From NCBI GenBank assembly GCA_021784635.1, contig JAJYHS010000105.1, forward strand, positions 1-8,934: a DNA stretch of 8,934 bases, written 5' to 3'. Below, in pieces: positions 833 to 8,934 of this stretch. The stretch is from a bacterium. GTDB taxonomy: Bacteria; Bdellovibrionota; Bdellovibrionia; Bdellovibrionales; UBA1609. The notes under the pieces were generated by a model, which saw only the letters and a list, made by a program, of their open reading frames with translations, was not told the origin of the DNA and searched no databases. Numbering within the stretch: the first letter of the stretch is position 1; every line of letters starts with the position of its first letter. The translations under genes and the position numbers were made by a program.

Positions 833-2992
833 GTGTCGCAAAAATACGAGTATTTTGGCAAATATATTCTCCTTGAGAAATTCGCAACCGGCGGGATGGC
901 CGAGGTGTGGCTTGCGCGCGCCCCTGGGGCTGGCGGGATCGGCAAATTTGTCGCGATCAAAAAGATTCTTGCGCAGTATTCTGATAATCCTGAGTTTTTA
1001 CAAATGTTCAAAGACGAGGCGACAATCGCGATGAATCTGTCGCACGGTAATATTGTTTCGATATACGAACTCGGGCAAGAAAAGAACCAACTTTTTTTGG
1101 TGATGGATTTTGTCGAAGGGCGAAACCTTCGACAAATTCTCAACAAAATGAAAGGTTCTTCGCATAAATTTTCACTCGATCAAATCGTCTACATGATTAA
1201 AGAGGTCGCTGCGGGGCTCGATCACGCGCACCGCAGTCTCAACAGCGCGACCGGCAAACCGCTCAATATCATCCACCGTGACATGAGTCCGCAAAACATA
1301 ATGATTAGTTTCGAAGGGGAAGTGAAAATCATCGACTTCGGTATCGCCAAAGCCGAAAGTCAAATCGAAAAAACCCGTTCCGGTACGCTCAAAGGCAAAT
1401 TTGGCTATATGAGCCCGGAACAAGCAGAGGGCCAACCTACCGATTTACGAACCGACGTCTTTTCTCTCGGCATCGTGCTGTGGGAGCTTCTCGCCAACGA
1501 CCGACTTTTTATTGCCAATAACGAAATCAATACACTTCGTAAAATTCGTGAATGCAATGTACCTTCTCTTGCGAAACTTAATCCGACTGTTTCGCCCGAA
1601 TTAGAACGAATTGTGATGAAGGCGCTGACGCGTGATCGTAACTTGCGCTACCAAACGGCTGCGGCAATGCACCGGGATCTCAACCGGTTTTTAAATCGAC
1701 AATACCCTGACTTTTCACCGCATGATTTTTCAGTTTTTATTAAAACGCTTTATACGGACGAAATTATTGAACTCCGTAGCCGGCAAGTCGAATACGCGAA
1801 AATCCCGTTTCGCCCGGCCGTTGTCAAAGGCGAAGGCGAAAAAACGATGGTGACTTCATTTCCGCAAATGCCGACGATGAAGACCTCTAAAAACTCCATC
1901 CGCGCTGGCACAGGAGTAAGCATTCAGTCAATTCAAACAATGAAAGCGGAAGGCGAACCTTCCGTCACCGAAACCGAAACGTTTAGCGAGTCAGACATCC
2001 CAGAAGGGACAGTCACAAAGCCGCCCGTTGCGGAGAGCACAGGCGAGAAAAAGCAGATTGAACTGCCAACTGCGGAAAATGGCGCGCCCTTGCTAAACGC
2101 AAGTCTTTTGTCGCAGAATTTGCAACAGCAGATCGTTGTAACCGGCAAAATGCCGATGAATTTGTCAAATGACAGCCCGCTTGTAACGCCAAACGCGACT
2201 CTTGAATCTGACACTCCGGCCCCGTTTCGCCCAGATAAACCGCGACGACAACACAAAAGGCATAAGCGCTCGTCATCAAATCCAGCTCTAAATGTAATGA
2301 TTTTTCTTGCCGCGATGATTGTTACTTACGTTGTCGTTGCGAATTATTTTCCGATGCAGACAAATCATGTCGAAATGGTCGTTCGCAACCTATTCGGAGT
2401 TGCGCAAAATTCACCGACGCCCGCTTCACTGCCGAACAATTCGATTCGCATCAATACTTCGGCTCTCGACACAGCGGTCGGGTTGGCTTCTGTGTCACCC
2501 GAAAAGCCGACGATTCTGCCAACTCCACCGACGGCGGGGCTGACCGTCAACAGCGTACCGTCGGGCGCGGAAATTTATGTCAATGGCACCGACACCGGCC
2601 AAACCACCCCTGGGGTGGTCAACGTTCCGACGAATCAACGTTTTTCAATACGGTTGTCGCTTGATCGATACCTTGATTACAACAAGTATAACCTCAACTT
2701 CAAAATGACTGGCCCGACTTTTACCGCGACACTTCAACCAGCGTTAATCGGTTACATTGACGTGGATGTCAGGCCGCCGATTTATACGCATATTTATATT
2801 AACGGCCGCCGACTCAGCGACAGCGATCTGCCGCTGAGCGATTACGCTATACCGGCTAACTCCCCCGTCACAATACGAGCGATCAACCCCATTACGGGCT
2901 CTTGGGCGGAGCGCACCGTTCGCCTAGAGCAGAACCAACATTTAGCGATTATTCTGCGCCTGCACAGCGGCCGTCGCCCGGCCAGTCGGTAA
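833..2992 (+). CDS. Transmembrane Ser/Thr protein kinase with periplasmic PEGA repeats
   Basis: A 719-residue Hanks-type kinase of the kind common in Myxococcota and Bdellovibrionota. The cytoplasmic kinase domain spans about residues 8-290: nucleotide loop ATGGMAEV at 18-25, ATP-anchoring K43 in VAIKK, helix-C E62, catalytic loop HRDMSPQN at 148-155, DFG at 168-170 and SPE at 194-196 in place of APE. All catalytic residues are present, so it should be active. Residues 330-470 form a low-complexity linker rich in Thr, Ser, Pro and Glu, a likely target of autophosphorylation. A basic stretch (470-479) precedes one membrane helix (about 485-505), which fixes the N-terminus inside. The periplasmic part carries a PEGA module (about 568-637, with SVPSGAEIYVNGTDTG) and a second, more divergent one (about 638-712, with YIDVDVRPPIYTHIYINGRR). 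PEGA domains are thought to bind surface or envelope structures. Translation starts at a GTG. It is the first gene of a probable operon with the synthetase 40 bp downstream. Substrates are unknown. Confidence 0.93.
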   Translation: MSQKYEYFGKYILLEKFATGGMAEVWLARAPGAGGIGKFVAIKKILAQYSDNPEFLQMFKDEATIAMNLSHGNIVSIYELGQEKNQLFLVMDFVEGRNLRQILNKMKGSSHKFSLDQIVYMIKEVAAGLDHAHRSLNSATGKPLNIIHRDMSPQNIMISFEGEVKIIDFGIAKAESQIEKTRSGTLKGKFGYMSPEQAEGQPTDLRTDVFSLGIVLWELLANDRLFIANNEINTLRKIRECNVPSLAKLNPTVSPELERIVMKALTRDRNLRYQTAAAMHRDLNRFLNRQYPDFSPHDFSVFIKTLYTDEIIELRSRQVEYAKIPFRPAVVKGEGEKTMVTSFPQMPTMKTSKNSIRAGTGVSIQSIQTMKAEGEPSVTETETFSESDIPEGTVTKPPVAESTGEKKQIELPTAENGAPLLNASLLSQNLQQQIVVTGKMPMNLSNDSPLVTPNATLESDTPAPFRPDKPRRQHKRHKRSSSNPALNVMIFLAAMIVTYVVVANYFPMQTNHVEMVVRNLFGVAQNSPTPASLPNNSIRINTSALDTAVGLASVSPEKPTILPTPPTAGLTVNSVPSGAEIYVNGTDTGQTTPGVVNVPTNQRFSIRLSLDRYLDYNKYNLNFKMTGPTFTATLQPALIGYIDVDVRPPIYTHIYINGRRLSDSDLPLSDYAIPANSPVTIRAINPITGSWAERTVRLEQNQHLAIILRLHSGRRPASR

Positions 2993-5558: not shown

Positions 5559-8500
5559 TTACGCACCCTGCAAAATATTTGCACAGTCTGATTCCGTCTT
5601 AGAATGCAATTTTTCGCGAAGTAATTTAATAAACTCGGAAATGTACGCGTTTTGCGCTTCGAGAACTCTTTGTTGCGTCGGACTATCCGCCGACTCCACC
5701 GCCGATTCGCCAAAAAAACGCCGAATATGATCCGTCAAATGGCCGGTATTACCGTTAACCGGCTCAAAACCCACTAACCGGGTAAACTCTTCGCCGTTCA
5801 TTTCCCCTTTTCGCGCGAGCGCCAATATTTTTTCAACATACCACTCTTTTGGATGCAGATTTAGAAAATCAGAAACCATATAGTTCTCCATGGCCCGCAT
5901 TAACTGACCCAAATTCTCAACCAATTTACCGGGCATGTTGTCGATACTCGCATAACGTCCAACGCCTAAATTAAAATTGGTGTCGACAGTGCCGCCCTGA
6001 GGGTCAAATCCAAGTTCGTAAATTGCGGTGTAAAGTTGATAGGTCGCCTGACGGATATCGCTGGACGGCCCACTTGTCACATCAAGAACGCTTGTGTCGT
6101 TACTCGGATTCGGGCTCATGACGATGCGTTCGAATGCTCGTGAAGCAAGCGCCGAATAGACTGAAAAAATCATATTGCGTGCCGAATTGCCCTCAGCACC
6201 GGAACCGGCGGCAAATTTGACGTAACCCCCAACTCCAGGTGTTGGTGGAACAACGACCACATTTTCAATCGCAAGACCCAACCGCAGCCCCATATAGGCA
6301 TGGCCAAATTCGTGAGCGGCGATCCACAAGCGTTGGGCTGGAATTTTTCCTTTTAGCTCCGACGATGGAAATTGTAGAGCGACCCTTCGGCGCAAAACGT
6401 CTTCAACTGGTTTCTCCCCGCCTTTTTCAAGCGGAACCATTTTTACGGCGACCTCAGAAGTGGCGAAATCATAATCGAGAATGATCTTTAGCGGCTCCGC
6501 CTCGATTTCTTTCCGCCGCGGCAGATTTTGTAATGCGGCTTCTAAATCTGAAGCAATTTTATTTTGCACCGAAACGACAGTATAGCGGCCCCCCTCTGAA
6601 GGGATAACCGTCTCTTGTTCAAGATATTTTTCGTAGTTCGGCGCTAATTCGACATCAATTTTAGCGACATTTCTGCCGTTTGAATCGAGCAACCGAGATC
6701 GAACCACACGTTCGACTTGCCGGCGAATGAGTTCGCGAAAGTCGTTTTGATCAAGAGGTTTCATTACGGTAAAACGCGACATCATCCGGCTCACGGTTTC
6801 GGGCAAAAACATTGTTCCCAAAAGTTCTTTGAGCGCCATTGGTGAAAAACTTAGTTTGCGCCACGCCCTCATGACATCGCGAATTGACGTCAATCGCGGG
6901 TCGGCCTTAAAACCAAACCGATCGACCGAAAAATTCATTGTAACCATAATAAACGCGTCGCGAATGTCGATACGCGCGCCCGCGCCAATACGGGACGATG
7001 TCGTAATTTGACCGTCGCCCAGAAGATCTTTAATCACGCCCATAATGGGTCGATTAACAAACGTACCGGTCTGCGGGTCGACTTCAAAAACTTTATCGAG
7101 TTCTTCTAACAATAAAATATATTTGCCGGCATGACCCGATTTAACGGATTGCATTCGTGCCGCTGTGATGTTTTCGTTCAAATACGCCACAAAATCTTTA
7201 ACTGTATCGGGCGAATCAGAGGCAAACTGCTGTAGGTTAACCTTAACAACCGGCAGTTGAAGCTGTTCGGCCACGTTCTTCACGAGTTCTGTTTTACCAA
7301 TGCCCGGAAACCCGCTCAAAATGCGCGCCGATGGCTCAAGTGTCGCCGGCCCTGGCCGACTCAAATATTTTTTCATGTCATCAAGTACAAGTCCGGCAGC
7401 ATCCTTTTGCCCCAGCAGAACGGAATTAATCTTGTCATATATGTCACTACTGATATTTGCGGTCGGAGGATATCGCGCGGCTAACACATCCTTCTTCGTA
7501 ACTCTCGGTTGCCGCGTTTTGTTTGGATATCGCGGCTTTTGCATTGCCAAATTTTTGGGCGCTAAAAACAGCTTTGCACCCGGGTCGTAGGCCGCCTCGA
7601 TAGTAAATGAATCCCGTTTCTTTAATAATCCATCCCTGTTCACTAATGGAGTTACCTGAATATGGGCAACGTTATTAACTATTGAAATATTTAAATCTCT
7701 CGGCCGGTCGACTGTTGCGTCTCCGTGAGGGTCCTTGGCTTTGGTACCAAAGTTAATGAGTTGCTCCGCAAGAGCCCTAACTCTAAATATAGTTTCTCTC
7801 GCCCCTGATGGCGCGTAAATCGCATGAGTATTCAGAAAATCAACGAAGGACGAATCAAAATTCACGCGTACGGATTTTTTTTCTGCCGATTGTGCCGTGG
7901 AGTCGACTACCAATTTAATAATGCGTTCGTAAACCGCTCGGCTCAACGGCTGCACAATAACCGTGTTCGGCGCCAACCGGCTAACCGTATTTGAGCGAAA
8001 CATCTTAGATAGAACGCGATAGCGCGCGCTCGGTTGGGTCCGAATCCATTGGTCGAACTTCAAAAAATCATCGATCGATAAATCGTAAAAATTCTTATTT
8101 TCGCCCAATACTTTTGAGGTGAATAACTCGATATCATTTGGCGAAAAATTCATCGTCGTAATCAGCATCAAATTCGACACATTTACGTTTATCCCGCTAG
8201 CACTGAAGGCTCCTTCTGAAAGAATTGAGTTGATGGTGCCGATCAAAGTCTGCGTTTTTTCGTTTTTGCTCGTGTCGATTTCCGGCACTTTATCCAACTC
8301 ATCAATGACAACAACAAGCGGCTCGTTAACAACCCAATTCCCATTCACTACTCGAAGCGCTCCGTGATTAATAAGGGACAGAAATAAATCGTTAGCAAAA
8401 CTTCGGTTACCTTCATTAGACGCGTAATCTTGGGCATTAAAGATCACAAGAGGTAGACCGATTGACTCAAGCGATTTCAGCATCCCCGTTTTGCCAACTC

Positions 8501-8846
8501 CAGGTAGACCGATTAAGTTAAGTGCAACAGGTTCGCCGGTTCGGTTCGGAAATGACTCGATATATTGCAATAATCGGTCTTGCAAAACAGCGACGGTTTT
8601 TTCTTGCCCGAGAATTTGGCCGTTTAACGTTTTGGCAACAGCGTGAACCTGTTTCTGAAACGCTTCTTTTTTTGCCGTTCCGAACCGAATATCCGCAATC
8701 TGCTTTTTTATATAGTTGGCTTTATGTCCGGCTTTTAGAATCCGCCTTGGTGGCGCCGCATATGCCAATAATGGAGTCAAAACTCCAAGTAATAAAGTGA
8801 CTACTAAAAATTTAAAGCAAGACCTTTTATAAACTGAACCGATCAT
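5559..8846 (-). CDS. Tandem Clp-type AAA+ ATPase fused to an M41 (FtsH-like) zinc protease, with N-terminal signal or anchor
   Basis: A 1095-residue predicted single-chain unfoldase-protease. Residues 8-30 are a basic start and a hydrophobic stretch ending AYA-A, like a signal peptide or membrane anchor. AAA+ module 1: GQ motif near 80, Walker A GLPGVGKT 113-120, Walker B VVVIDELDK 178-186, sensor-1 TMNFS 231-235, probable arginine finger R290, sensor-2 GAR 348-350. Module 2: Walker A GFPGIGKT 512-519, Walker B LLLEELDK 578-585, TMNFS 636-640, R687, GGR 752-754. The layout matches the Clp/HSP100 AAA_2 class and the FtsH second region of homology is not seen. The protease domain (about 838-1029) has zinc motif HEFGH 845-849 (H845, H849, base E846), third ligand D930 in SSDIRQAT, and the family's C-terminal helices (EMNGEEF, 1015-1021). 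No Clp N-domain, ClpB middle domain or FtsH periplasmic domain is visible. Substrate and compartment are unknown. The ATG start is preferred because of the signal-like segment, but the frame is open upstream. Confidence 0.9.
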   Translation of the reverse strand: MIGSVYKRSCFKFLVVTLLLGVLTPLLAYAAPPRRILKAGHKANYIKKQIADIRFGTAKKEAFQKQVHAVAKTLNGQILGQEKTVAVLQDRLLQYIESFPNRTGEPVALNLIGLPGVGKTGMLKSLESIGLPLVIFNAQDYASNEGNRSFANDLFLSLINHGALRVVNGNWVVNEPLVVVIDELDKVPEIDTSKNEKTQTLIGTINSILSEGAFSASGINVNVSNLMLITTMNFSPNDIELFTSKVLGENKNFYDLSIDDFLKFDQWIRTQPSARYRVLSKMFRSNTVSRLAPNTVIVQPLSRAVYERIIKLVVDSTAQSAEKKSVRVNFDSSFVDFLNTHAIYAPSGARETIFRVRALAEQLINFGTKAKDPHGDATVDRPRDLNISIVNNVAHIQVTPLVNRDGLLKKRDSFTIEAAYDPGAKLFLAPKNLAMQKPRYPNKTRQPRVTKKDVLAARYPPTANISSDIYDKINSVLLGQKDAAGLVLDDMKKYLSRPGPATLEPSARILSGFPGIGKTELVKNVAEQLQLPVVKVNLQQFASDSPDTVKDFVAYLNENITAARMQSVKSGHAGKYILLLEELDKVFEVDPQTGTFVNRPIMGVIKDLLGDGQITTSSRIGAGARIDIRDAFIMVTMNFSVDRFGFKADPRLTSIRDVMRAWRKLSFSPMALKELLGTMFLPETVSRMMSRFTVMKPLDQNDFRELIRRQVERVVRSRLLDSNGRNVAKIDVELAPNYEKYLEQETVIPSEGGRYTVVSVQNKIASDLEAALQNLPRRKEIEAEPLKIILDYDFATSEVAVKMVPLEKGGEKPVEDVLRRRVALQFPSSELKGKIPAQRLWIAAHEFGHAYMGLRLGLAIENVVVVPPTPGVGGYVKFAAGSGAEGNSARNMIFSVYSALASRAFERIVMSPNPSNDTSVLDVTSGPSSDIRQATYQLYTAIYELGFDPQGGTVDTNFNLGVGRYASIDNMPGKLVENLGQLMRAMENYMVSDFLNLHPKEWYVEKILALARKGEMNGEEFTRLVGFEPVNGNTGHLTDHIRRFFGESAVESADSPTQQRVLEAQNAYISEFIKLLREKLHSKTESDCANILQGA

Positions 8847-8934
8847 AGTCCCCCCCCGGAACGCAGACTGTTCTACTGTGGCCGTGAATGTAATTGTTTT
8901 AAAATCGGCACGGTAGGATAGCGCCTGGTAGATC
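8847..8934 (-). other. Upstream region of the protease gene, with the reading frame open to the window edge
   Basis: On the minus strand the protease frame continues without a stop for 29 codons before the proposed ATG, up to the end of the window. The translation (YQALSYRADFKTITF and onward) shows no recognisable domain. No clear -35/-10 promoter pair is seen; an AT-rich TTTTAAAA lies at 8897-8904. The stretch may be an untranslated leader plus promoter, the end of an upstream gene, or an N-terminal extension of the protease. Confidence 0.4.
8850..8857 (-). promoter_or_regulatory. Run of eight G before the protease start codon
   Basis: The minus strand reads TCC, eight G, ACT, then the ATG. 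The G run lies where a Shine-Dalgarno sequence should be and could pair with the 16S anti-Shine-Dalgarno by G-C and G-U pairs. Homopolymer runs of this length can slip during replication, so translation of the protease might vary between cells. If the true start is upstream, the same run would be in-frame coding sequence. Confidence 0.45.

What the first reader, a model, noticed from the sequence alone, without database searches (positions are those of the whole stretch)
5559..8846. Clp-type tandem AAA+ motors fused to an FtsH-type M41 peptidase in one chain
Clp unfoldases normally pair with separate ClpP or HslV peptidases, and M41 peptidase normally follows a single FtsH-family AAA domain. 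Here two modules with HSP100 features (GKTEL after Walker A, TMNFS sensor, F-x-x-x-TVSR arginine-finger segment, GAR/GGR sensor 2) precede an M41 domain with all three zinc ligands (H845, H849, D930) and the catalytic Glu (E846). This suggests an independent invention of a self-compartmentalised or membrane-tethered ATP-dependent protease. I know of no characterised protein with this arrangement.
Basis: partly seen in the sequence, partly recalled or inferred. Interest (0 to 1): 0.88.

Follow-up and report, generated by a model that had tools for sequence, protein, structure and literature searches.

The report
Exported Clp-motor zinc protease
A bacterium related to Bdellovibrio encodes one protein that joins two Clp-type ATP-motor domains to an FtsH-type zinc-protease domain behind a predicted export signal, so it would likely unfold and cut proteins outside the cytoplasm, a place said to lack ATP.

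Summary
In detail: the 1095-residue ORF carries two AAA+ modules resembling Clp D2 and then an FtsH-type M41 domain. Family profiles, two AlphaFold models and structure searches agree, although the window protein alone stays under Pfam's M41 cut-off. Motor and zinc residues are conserved in a family of 67 proteins.

Most members start like Sec-exported proteins (crude caller: 56 of 67, against 0 of 28 Clp-type controls), the window protein has no other hydrophobic span, and most end with a lone cysteine. The machine is therefore predicted to work outside the cytoplasm.

The same genome encodes a second, distantly homologous, exported-type Clp+M41 protein. Its family matches 37 of 368 genomes of the phylum (33 matches reach M41), and its long forms carry three motors.

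Against simple threading: the family lacks the GYVG pore-loop segment, and the periplasm is said to lack ATP (PMC5740924, passage). Hexamer, ATPase, proteolysis and export are untested. Eight paper searches found no description. A new variant of a known kind.

The parts
5559..8846 (-). Whole gene: 1095-residue exported-type tandem AAA+ / M41 protein
   Evidence: ORF; 66 other proteins of the family; alignment A1
8757..8846 (-). Residues 1-30, Sec-signal-like segment: basic tip, hydrophobic core, A-Y-A before residue 31
   Evidence: Sequence and a crude rule-based caller; prediction only, no dedicated predictor
7572..8684 (-). Residues 55-425, first AAA+ module with its lid, Clp D2-like
8487..8510 (-). 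Walker A of module 1, residues 113-120, K119
   Evidence: K in 62 of 65 rows, 3 gaps
8298..8312 (-). Walker B of module 1, residues 179-183, E183
   Evidence: E in 63 of 65 rows, 1 D, 1 gap
8181..8210 (-). Beta hairpin before sensor 1, module 1, residues 213-222
   Evidence: Strands 213-216 and 219-222 in the model; aligned with Clp D2, gap in the two FtsH rows
7977..8000 (-). Arginine-finger segment of module 1, residues 283-290 (FRSNTVSR)
   Evidence: R290 in 65 of 65 rows; role recalled from AAA+ proteins
6381..7463 (-). Residues 462-822, second AAA+ module with its lid, Clp D2-like
7290..7313 (-). Walker A of module 2, residues 512-519, K518
   Evidence: K in 65 of 65 rows
7101..7115 (-). 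Walker B of module 2, residues 578-582, E582
   Evidence: E in 65 of 65 rows
6966..7010 (-). Beta hairpin before sensor 1, module 2, residues 613-627
   Evidence: Strands 613-616 and 624-627 in the model
6786..6809 (-). Arginine-finger segment of module 2, residues 680-687 (FLPETVSR)
   Evidence: R687 in 65 of 65 rows
5757..6371 (-). Residues 826-1030, M41 peptidase domain
6300..6314 (-). HEFGH, residues 845-849, two zinc ligands and catalytic Glu
   Evidence: H845, E846, H849 in 65 of 65 rows
6057..6059 (-). D930, third zinc ligand by alignment with FtsH
   Evidence: D in 63 of 65 rows, 2 gaps; alignment to FtsH
5562..5591 (-). C-terminal tail, residues 1086-1095, with the lone cysteine C1088
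   Evidence: Cys within the last 35 residues in 56 of 67 members, the only Cys beyond residue 45 in 44 of 67

Best explanation
It is a single-chain protein with two Clp D2-like ATPase modules, an FtsH-type zinc-protease domain and a predicted Sec signal, which would likely assemble into an exported ring that uses ATP to unfold substrates and feed them to its own protease sites. Shown here: the domain order, the conserved ATPase and zinc residues, the folds at the level of models, and the signal-like start with no other hydrophobic span. Inferred: export, signal cleavage, hexamer formation, ATP hydrolysis, unfolding and zinc-dependent cutting. Two ATPase rings would stack above an M41 tier, so unfolding and cutting need no partner such as ClpP. 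The lone C-terminal cysteine may join chains by disulfides or serve sorting. Clearing damaged proteins from the cell envelope is the likeliest task; the source of ATP is unknown.
For: Folds: Clp-type modules and FtsH-type M41. Family profile against PDB: HSP101 5e-19, ClpB 3.6e-16, FtsH 1e-14. Catalytic residues kept in both motors and the protease. Signal-like starts in 56 of 67 members, 23 of 33 of the second family, 0 of 28 Clp-type controls, 3 of 21 FtsH, 237 of 2000 shuffled starts. No 19-residue window with mean hydropathy over 1.15 beyond residue 60 in the window protein. The second exported-type family in the same genome repeats the theme. HSP101 of Plasmodium shows that an HSP100 can work outside the cytosol (PMC6550532, passages).
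Against: The GYVG pore-loop segment of Clp proteins is absent from both modules in all ten family rows aligned (five proteins). A review says that the periplasm lacks ATP (PMC5740924, passage). The signal caller is my own crude rule; at least one of its 56 calls is wrong (P0016 is a truncated protein starting at Walker A), and many of the 28 controls are near-copies from Corynebacterium. The mature N-terminus is rich in Lys and Arg, which is unusual after a signal. Full-model pTM is 0.59, so the arrangement of domains is unsure. Single-sequence M41 scores are mostly under the Pfam cut-off. No conserved partner gene was seen (by eye).
Confidence: 0.45

Rival explanations
1. Exported but not a threading machine: nucleotide binding works as a switch or scaffold and the M41 domain cuts a few defined envelope proteins without processive unfolding.
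For: No GYVG pore-loop segment in either module; the loop after NAQxY in module 1 is poorly conserved; little ATP expected in the periplasm (PMC5740924, passage).
Against: Walker A, Walker B, arginine-finger and sensor residues are kept in both modules, which suggests hydrolysis; the second family keeps G-Y-x-G in its last module in the 3 of 3 rows aligned and in its first in 1 of 3.
Confidence: 0.25
2. A secreted or surface factor that acts on prey or other cells and uses their ATP.
For: The nearest named relative is a Bdellovibrionales MAG, from an order with predators (predation recalled); HSP101 is a precedent for an HSP100 acting beyond the producer's cytosol (PMC6550532, passages).
Against: Rare in the phylum, 7 of 368 genomes; two proteins of the family are named Elusimicrobia; no secretion gene recurs beside it in the six stretches looked at by eye.
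Confidence: 0.13
3. The hydrophobic start is an uncleaved anchor or start-site artefact and the motors and protease work on the cytoplasmic side, like FtsH.
For: ATP is available there; the segment after the hydrophobic core is strongly basic, which would favour keeping it inside; FtsH itself is anchored.
Against: Starts of relatives look like classical cleavable signals, with A-x-A-type ends; lone-cysteine bodies are typical of exported proteins (the general rule is recalled); the second family has the same kind of start.
Confidence: 0.13

Closest known systems
HSP100 proteins ClpA, ClpB, ClpC (and ClpX)
   Same: Fold of both ATPase modules, hairpin before sensor 1, lid, Walker and arginine-finger residues
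   Different: Two D2-like modules instead of D1+D2, built-in protease instead of ClpP, no GYVG pore segment, signal-like start, NCBIfam scores far under cut-off
FtsH and its mitochondrial kin (AFG3L2, YME1)
   Same: M41 domain: fold, HExxH and third Asp ligand
   Different: FtsH has one AAA domain of another class and anchors facing the ATP-rich side (recalled); here two Clp-like modules and an exported-type start; TIGR01241 scores 23.6 of 600 bits
Second family, own genome contig C114 (L023, P0068) and relatives
   Same: Exported-type start, Clp-like modules, M41, C-terminal Cys; aligns along 833 columns, probability 99.9%, E 1.5e-34
   Different: Much closer to ClpC and ClpB (2.6e-88 and about 2e-87), HEAGH instead of HEFGH, three motors in long forms, first modules not one clade with this family's
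Clp-AAA + FtsH-AAA + M41 hybrids without signal (P0129 Mesoterricola silvestris, P0106, P0131, P0133)
   Same: Clp-type module and M41 in one chain
   Different: Second motor groups with FtsH and the starts show no signal-like segment
Plasmodium HSP101, torsins, mitochondrial CLPB (Skd3)
   Same: Clp-type AAA+ proteins working outside the cytosol (HSP101: PMC6550532, passages; the others recalled); family member P0064 hits Pfam Torsin at 45.6 bits, over cut-off
   Different: Eukaryotic, no protease domain (recalled)

Membership tests
Peptidase family M41 | HExxH plus a third Asp ligand | tested here: met
   H845, E846, H849 65 of 65 rows; D930 63 of 65, 2 gaps
Peptidase family M41 | FtsH protease-domain fold | tested here: met
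Peptidase family M41 | Pfam PF01434 curated cut-off by the window protein itself | tested here: not met
   26.2 against 29.9 bits; second family 62.5 bits
FtsH (TIGR01241) | Curated whole-protein score | tested here: not met
   23.6 against 600 bits
FtsH | One AAA module of the FtsH class | tested here: not met
   Two modules, both Clp-like by fold and profile; the tree alone does not reject grouping them with FtsH (p-AU 0.428)
HSP100 (ClpA, ClpB, ClpC) | Clp-type AAA+ fold with hairpin before sensor 1 and D2-small lid | tested here: met
   Pfam ClpB_D2-small only 17.5 of 21.9 bits
HSP100 (ClpA, ClpB, ClpC) | Curated equivalog scores | tested here: not met
   ClpA 41.6 of 993, ClpB 30.3 of 1232 bits
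HSP100 (ClpA, ClpB, ClpC) | Aromatic GYVG pore loop | tested here: not met
   Absent from both modules in five proteins aligned
ATP-dependent (AAA+) protease as a mechanism | Hexamer, ATP-driven unfolding coupled to proteolysis | not testable with these tools
   Only residues and monomer models were examined
Sec-exported protein | Cleavable N-terminal signal peptide and no other membrane span | tested here: inconclusive
   Signal-like in 56 of 67 by a crude caller with at least one false call; controls 0 of 28 and 3 of 21; no experiment

The most novel reading that the evidence does not exclude
Bacteria run true ATP-fuelled unfoldase-proteases outside the cytoplasmic membrane, in two families built from Clp D2 motors and an FtsH-type peptidase, which means that ATP reaches that compartment in amounts able to drive protein unfolding.
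Probability: 0.33. Interest if true: 0.92.

Novelty: new variant of a known kind. Interest (0 to 1): 0.74.

Why it matters
AAA+ proteases are known from the cytoplasm and from ATP-containing organelle compartments, and envelope proteolysis in bacteria is held to run without ATP (recalled, and PMC5740924 passage on the periplasm). A conserved family with intact motor and protease residues behind export signals would either break that rule and imply ATP outside the cytoplasm, or show an ATPase fold working there in another way. It is also a natural chimera that joins Clp motors to the peptidase of FtsH, a direct test of how freely motors and peptidases can be recombined.

Tried and rejected
Rejected: chance motifs (65-row conservation); a lone oddity or assembly error (66 other proteins, several on contigs over 100 kb); FtsH-type motors (folds and profiles favour Clp; the tree alone does not reject it); a conserved operon partner (none seen by eye in six stretches; in L002 and G262, the same contig by length and genes, the gene follows a clpB-like gene); anti-phage defence (PADLOC hits only AAA parts, best DolB 63.1 bits). 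That no FtsH AAA row is among the 50 shown is not used as evidence.

Led nowhere: eight paper searches aimed at the arrangement (two searches returned no paper, the others capped lists of which I saw titles and starts of abstracts) and two on HSP101 and periplasmic ATP. Passages only were seen of PMC9020784, PMC5740924 and PMC6550532. Promoter and terminator scans gave fewer sites than shuffles. Lone C-terminal Cys as a general tag of exported proteins: 2 of 57 exported-type against 1 of 96 other ORFs in G262 stretches, 7 of 57 against 1 of 104 in G021 stretches; suggestive only. Two of the five clade tests did not finish; a related one was run. One genome-contig scan with the single protein found one relative, L002.

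Full report
Check of the observation. The ORF at 5559-8846 on the minus strand encodes 1095 residues. The frame stays open upstream to the end of the contig, and the window is the whole contig (8934 bases), so an earlier start cannot be excluded; the length fits relatives, and eight G lie 4-11 bases before the ATG. Pfam gives AAA and AAA_2 over cut-off, Peptidase_M41 and ClpB_D2-small under it; NCBIfam gives ClpA, ClpB and FtsH hits far under their cut-offs.

Family. A protein search scored 7994 candidates and returned 67 proteins at E <= 1e-3, the first being the window's own; the others are 32-62% identical over 54-99% of the query. By my count of that listing 39 of 67 rows carry PF01434 in the precomputed column and 28 do not; that column uses a looser rule than the curated cut-off, since the window protein is in it. 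One protein is named Bdellovibrionales and two Elusimicrobia. The window and 64 of the 67 were aligned (A1). Lys of Walker A, Glu of Walker B, R290, R687, R754 and the zinc ligands are invariant or nearly so; R350 is kept in 61 of 65. Among 368 genomes of the phylum 7 have a match at E <= 1e-30, in 5 of 181 genera; the match in G276 is cut by a contig end before M41. The family is rare and patchy. The same-genus genome G262 holds the contig of the named relative L002 (same length and genes), so the window comes from a Bdellovibrionales relative.

Export. The start has a basic tip, a long hydrophobic core and A-Y-A. My crude caller finds signal-like starts in 56 of 67 members, 23 of 33 of the second family, 0 of 28 Clp-type proteins, 3 of 21 FtsH and 237 of 2000 shuffled starts. 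Limits: P0016, a truncated protein, is wrongly among the 56; six of the 11 misses (P0013, P0031, P0057, P0065, P0066, P0067) lack the N-terminal part; many of the 28 controls are near-identical Corynebacterium proteins. A Cys lies in the last 35 residues of 56 of 67 and is the only one beyond residue 45 in 44 of 67; in the second family a tail Cys is in 32 of 33; among controls in 1 of 28 and 1 of 21. The two proteins named Elusimicrobia have a signal-like start but no tail Cys. Export remains a prediction.

The second family. Contig C114 of the same genome encodes another exported-type protein (1163 or 1151 residues by start choice) with two Clp-type modules and an M41 domain over the Pfam cut-off. 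A search returned 89 proteins; the top 33 were aligned (A3), the other 56 being more distant, mostly Clp-type, FtsH or other hybrids. The profile hits ClpC at 2.6e-88 and FtsH M41 at 5.8e-27. HEAGH is in 33 of 33; all 16 members of 1410 residues or more have three Walker A motifs, as has P0085. In P0095 the first two modules match the D1-D2 span of ClpA. It matches 37 of 368 genomes at E <= 1e-100; 33 of the 37 matches run through the M41 part, four (G270, G260, G198, G337) stop before it and could be other Clp proteins or cut genes, and five have an in-frame stop. Four of the 7 genomes with the first family have the second too. The families align along 833 columns. One clade of first modules is rejected (p-AU 0.003); one clade of both M41 groups is neither shown nor rejected (p-AU 0.477).

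How it may work. By analogy with Clp and FtsH, two ATPase rings would sit on a protease tier. Against this, the GYVG segment is absent from both modules of the five proteins aligned; the second family keeps G-Y-x-G in its last module in 3 of 3 rows and in the module before it in 1 of 3. ATP outside the cytoplasm is the main gap (PMC5740924, passage). HSP101 shows that an HSP100 can work outside the cytosol (PMC6550532, passages).

Surroundings. The window also holds a dephospho-CoA kinase gene, a Ser/Thr kinase with PEGA domain, an acyl-CoA ligase and a PhoB-like regulator, none an obvious partner. Elsewhere the genome has two proteins with M41 at 247 and 197 bits and two with ClpB_D2-small at 104 and 78 bits, likely ordinary FtsH and Clp proteins, not examined further.

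Verdict. A real family, undescribed in my searches, of predicted exported single-chain Clp-motor zinc proteases; a new variant of AAA+ protease.

Noticed in passing
L023:1727-5182 (own genome, contig C114): A second exported-type protein with Clp-type modules and M41; long relatives of 1410 residues or more have three motor modules.
   Followed up: partly
P0129 (Mesoterricola silvestris), P0106, P0131, P0133: Another hybrid kind without a signal-like start: one Clp-type module, one FtsH-type AAA module and M41 in one chain. P0129 is named for a described species.
   Followed up: partly
L027, L041, L044, L049 (genome G021): Lone cysteine near the C-terminus in 7 of 57 exported-type ORFs against 1 of 104 others (G262: 2 of 57 against 1 of 96); a possible sorting or linking tag.
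   Followed up: partly
window 8850-8857, minus strand: A run of eight G just before the start codon; it may serve ribosome binding and could vary in length (inference).
   Followed up: no
P0064 residues 43-112: First module of this family member hits Pfam Torsin at 45.6 bits, over cut-off, a link to Clp-type proteins of the ER lumen (ER recalled).
   Followed up: no
window 833-2992: Ser/Thr kinase with a PEGA domain, beside an acyl-CoA ligase and a PhoB-like regulator; no link to the finding was tested.
   Followed up: no
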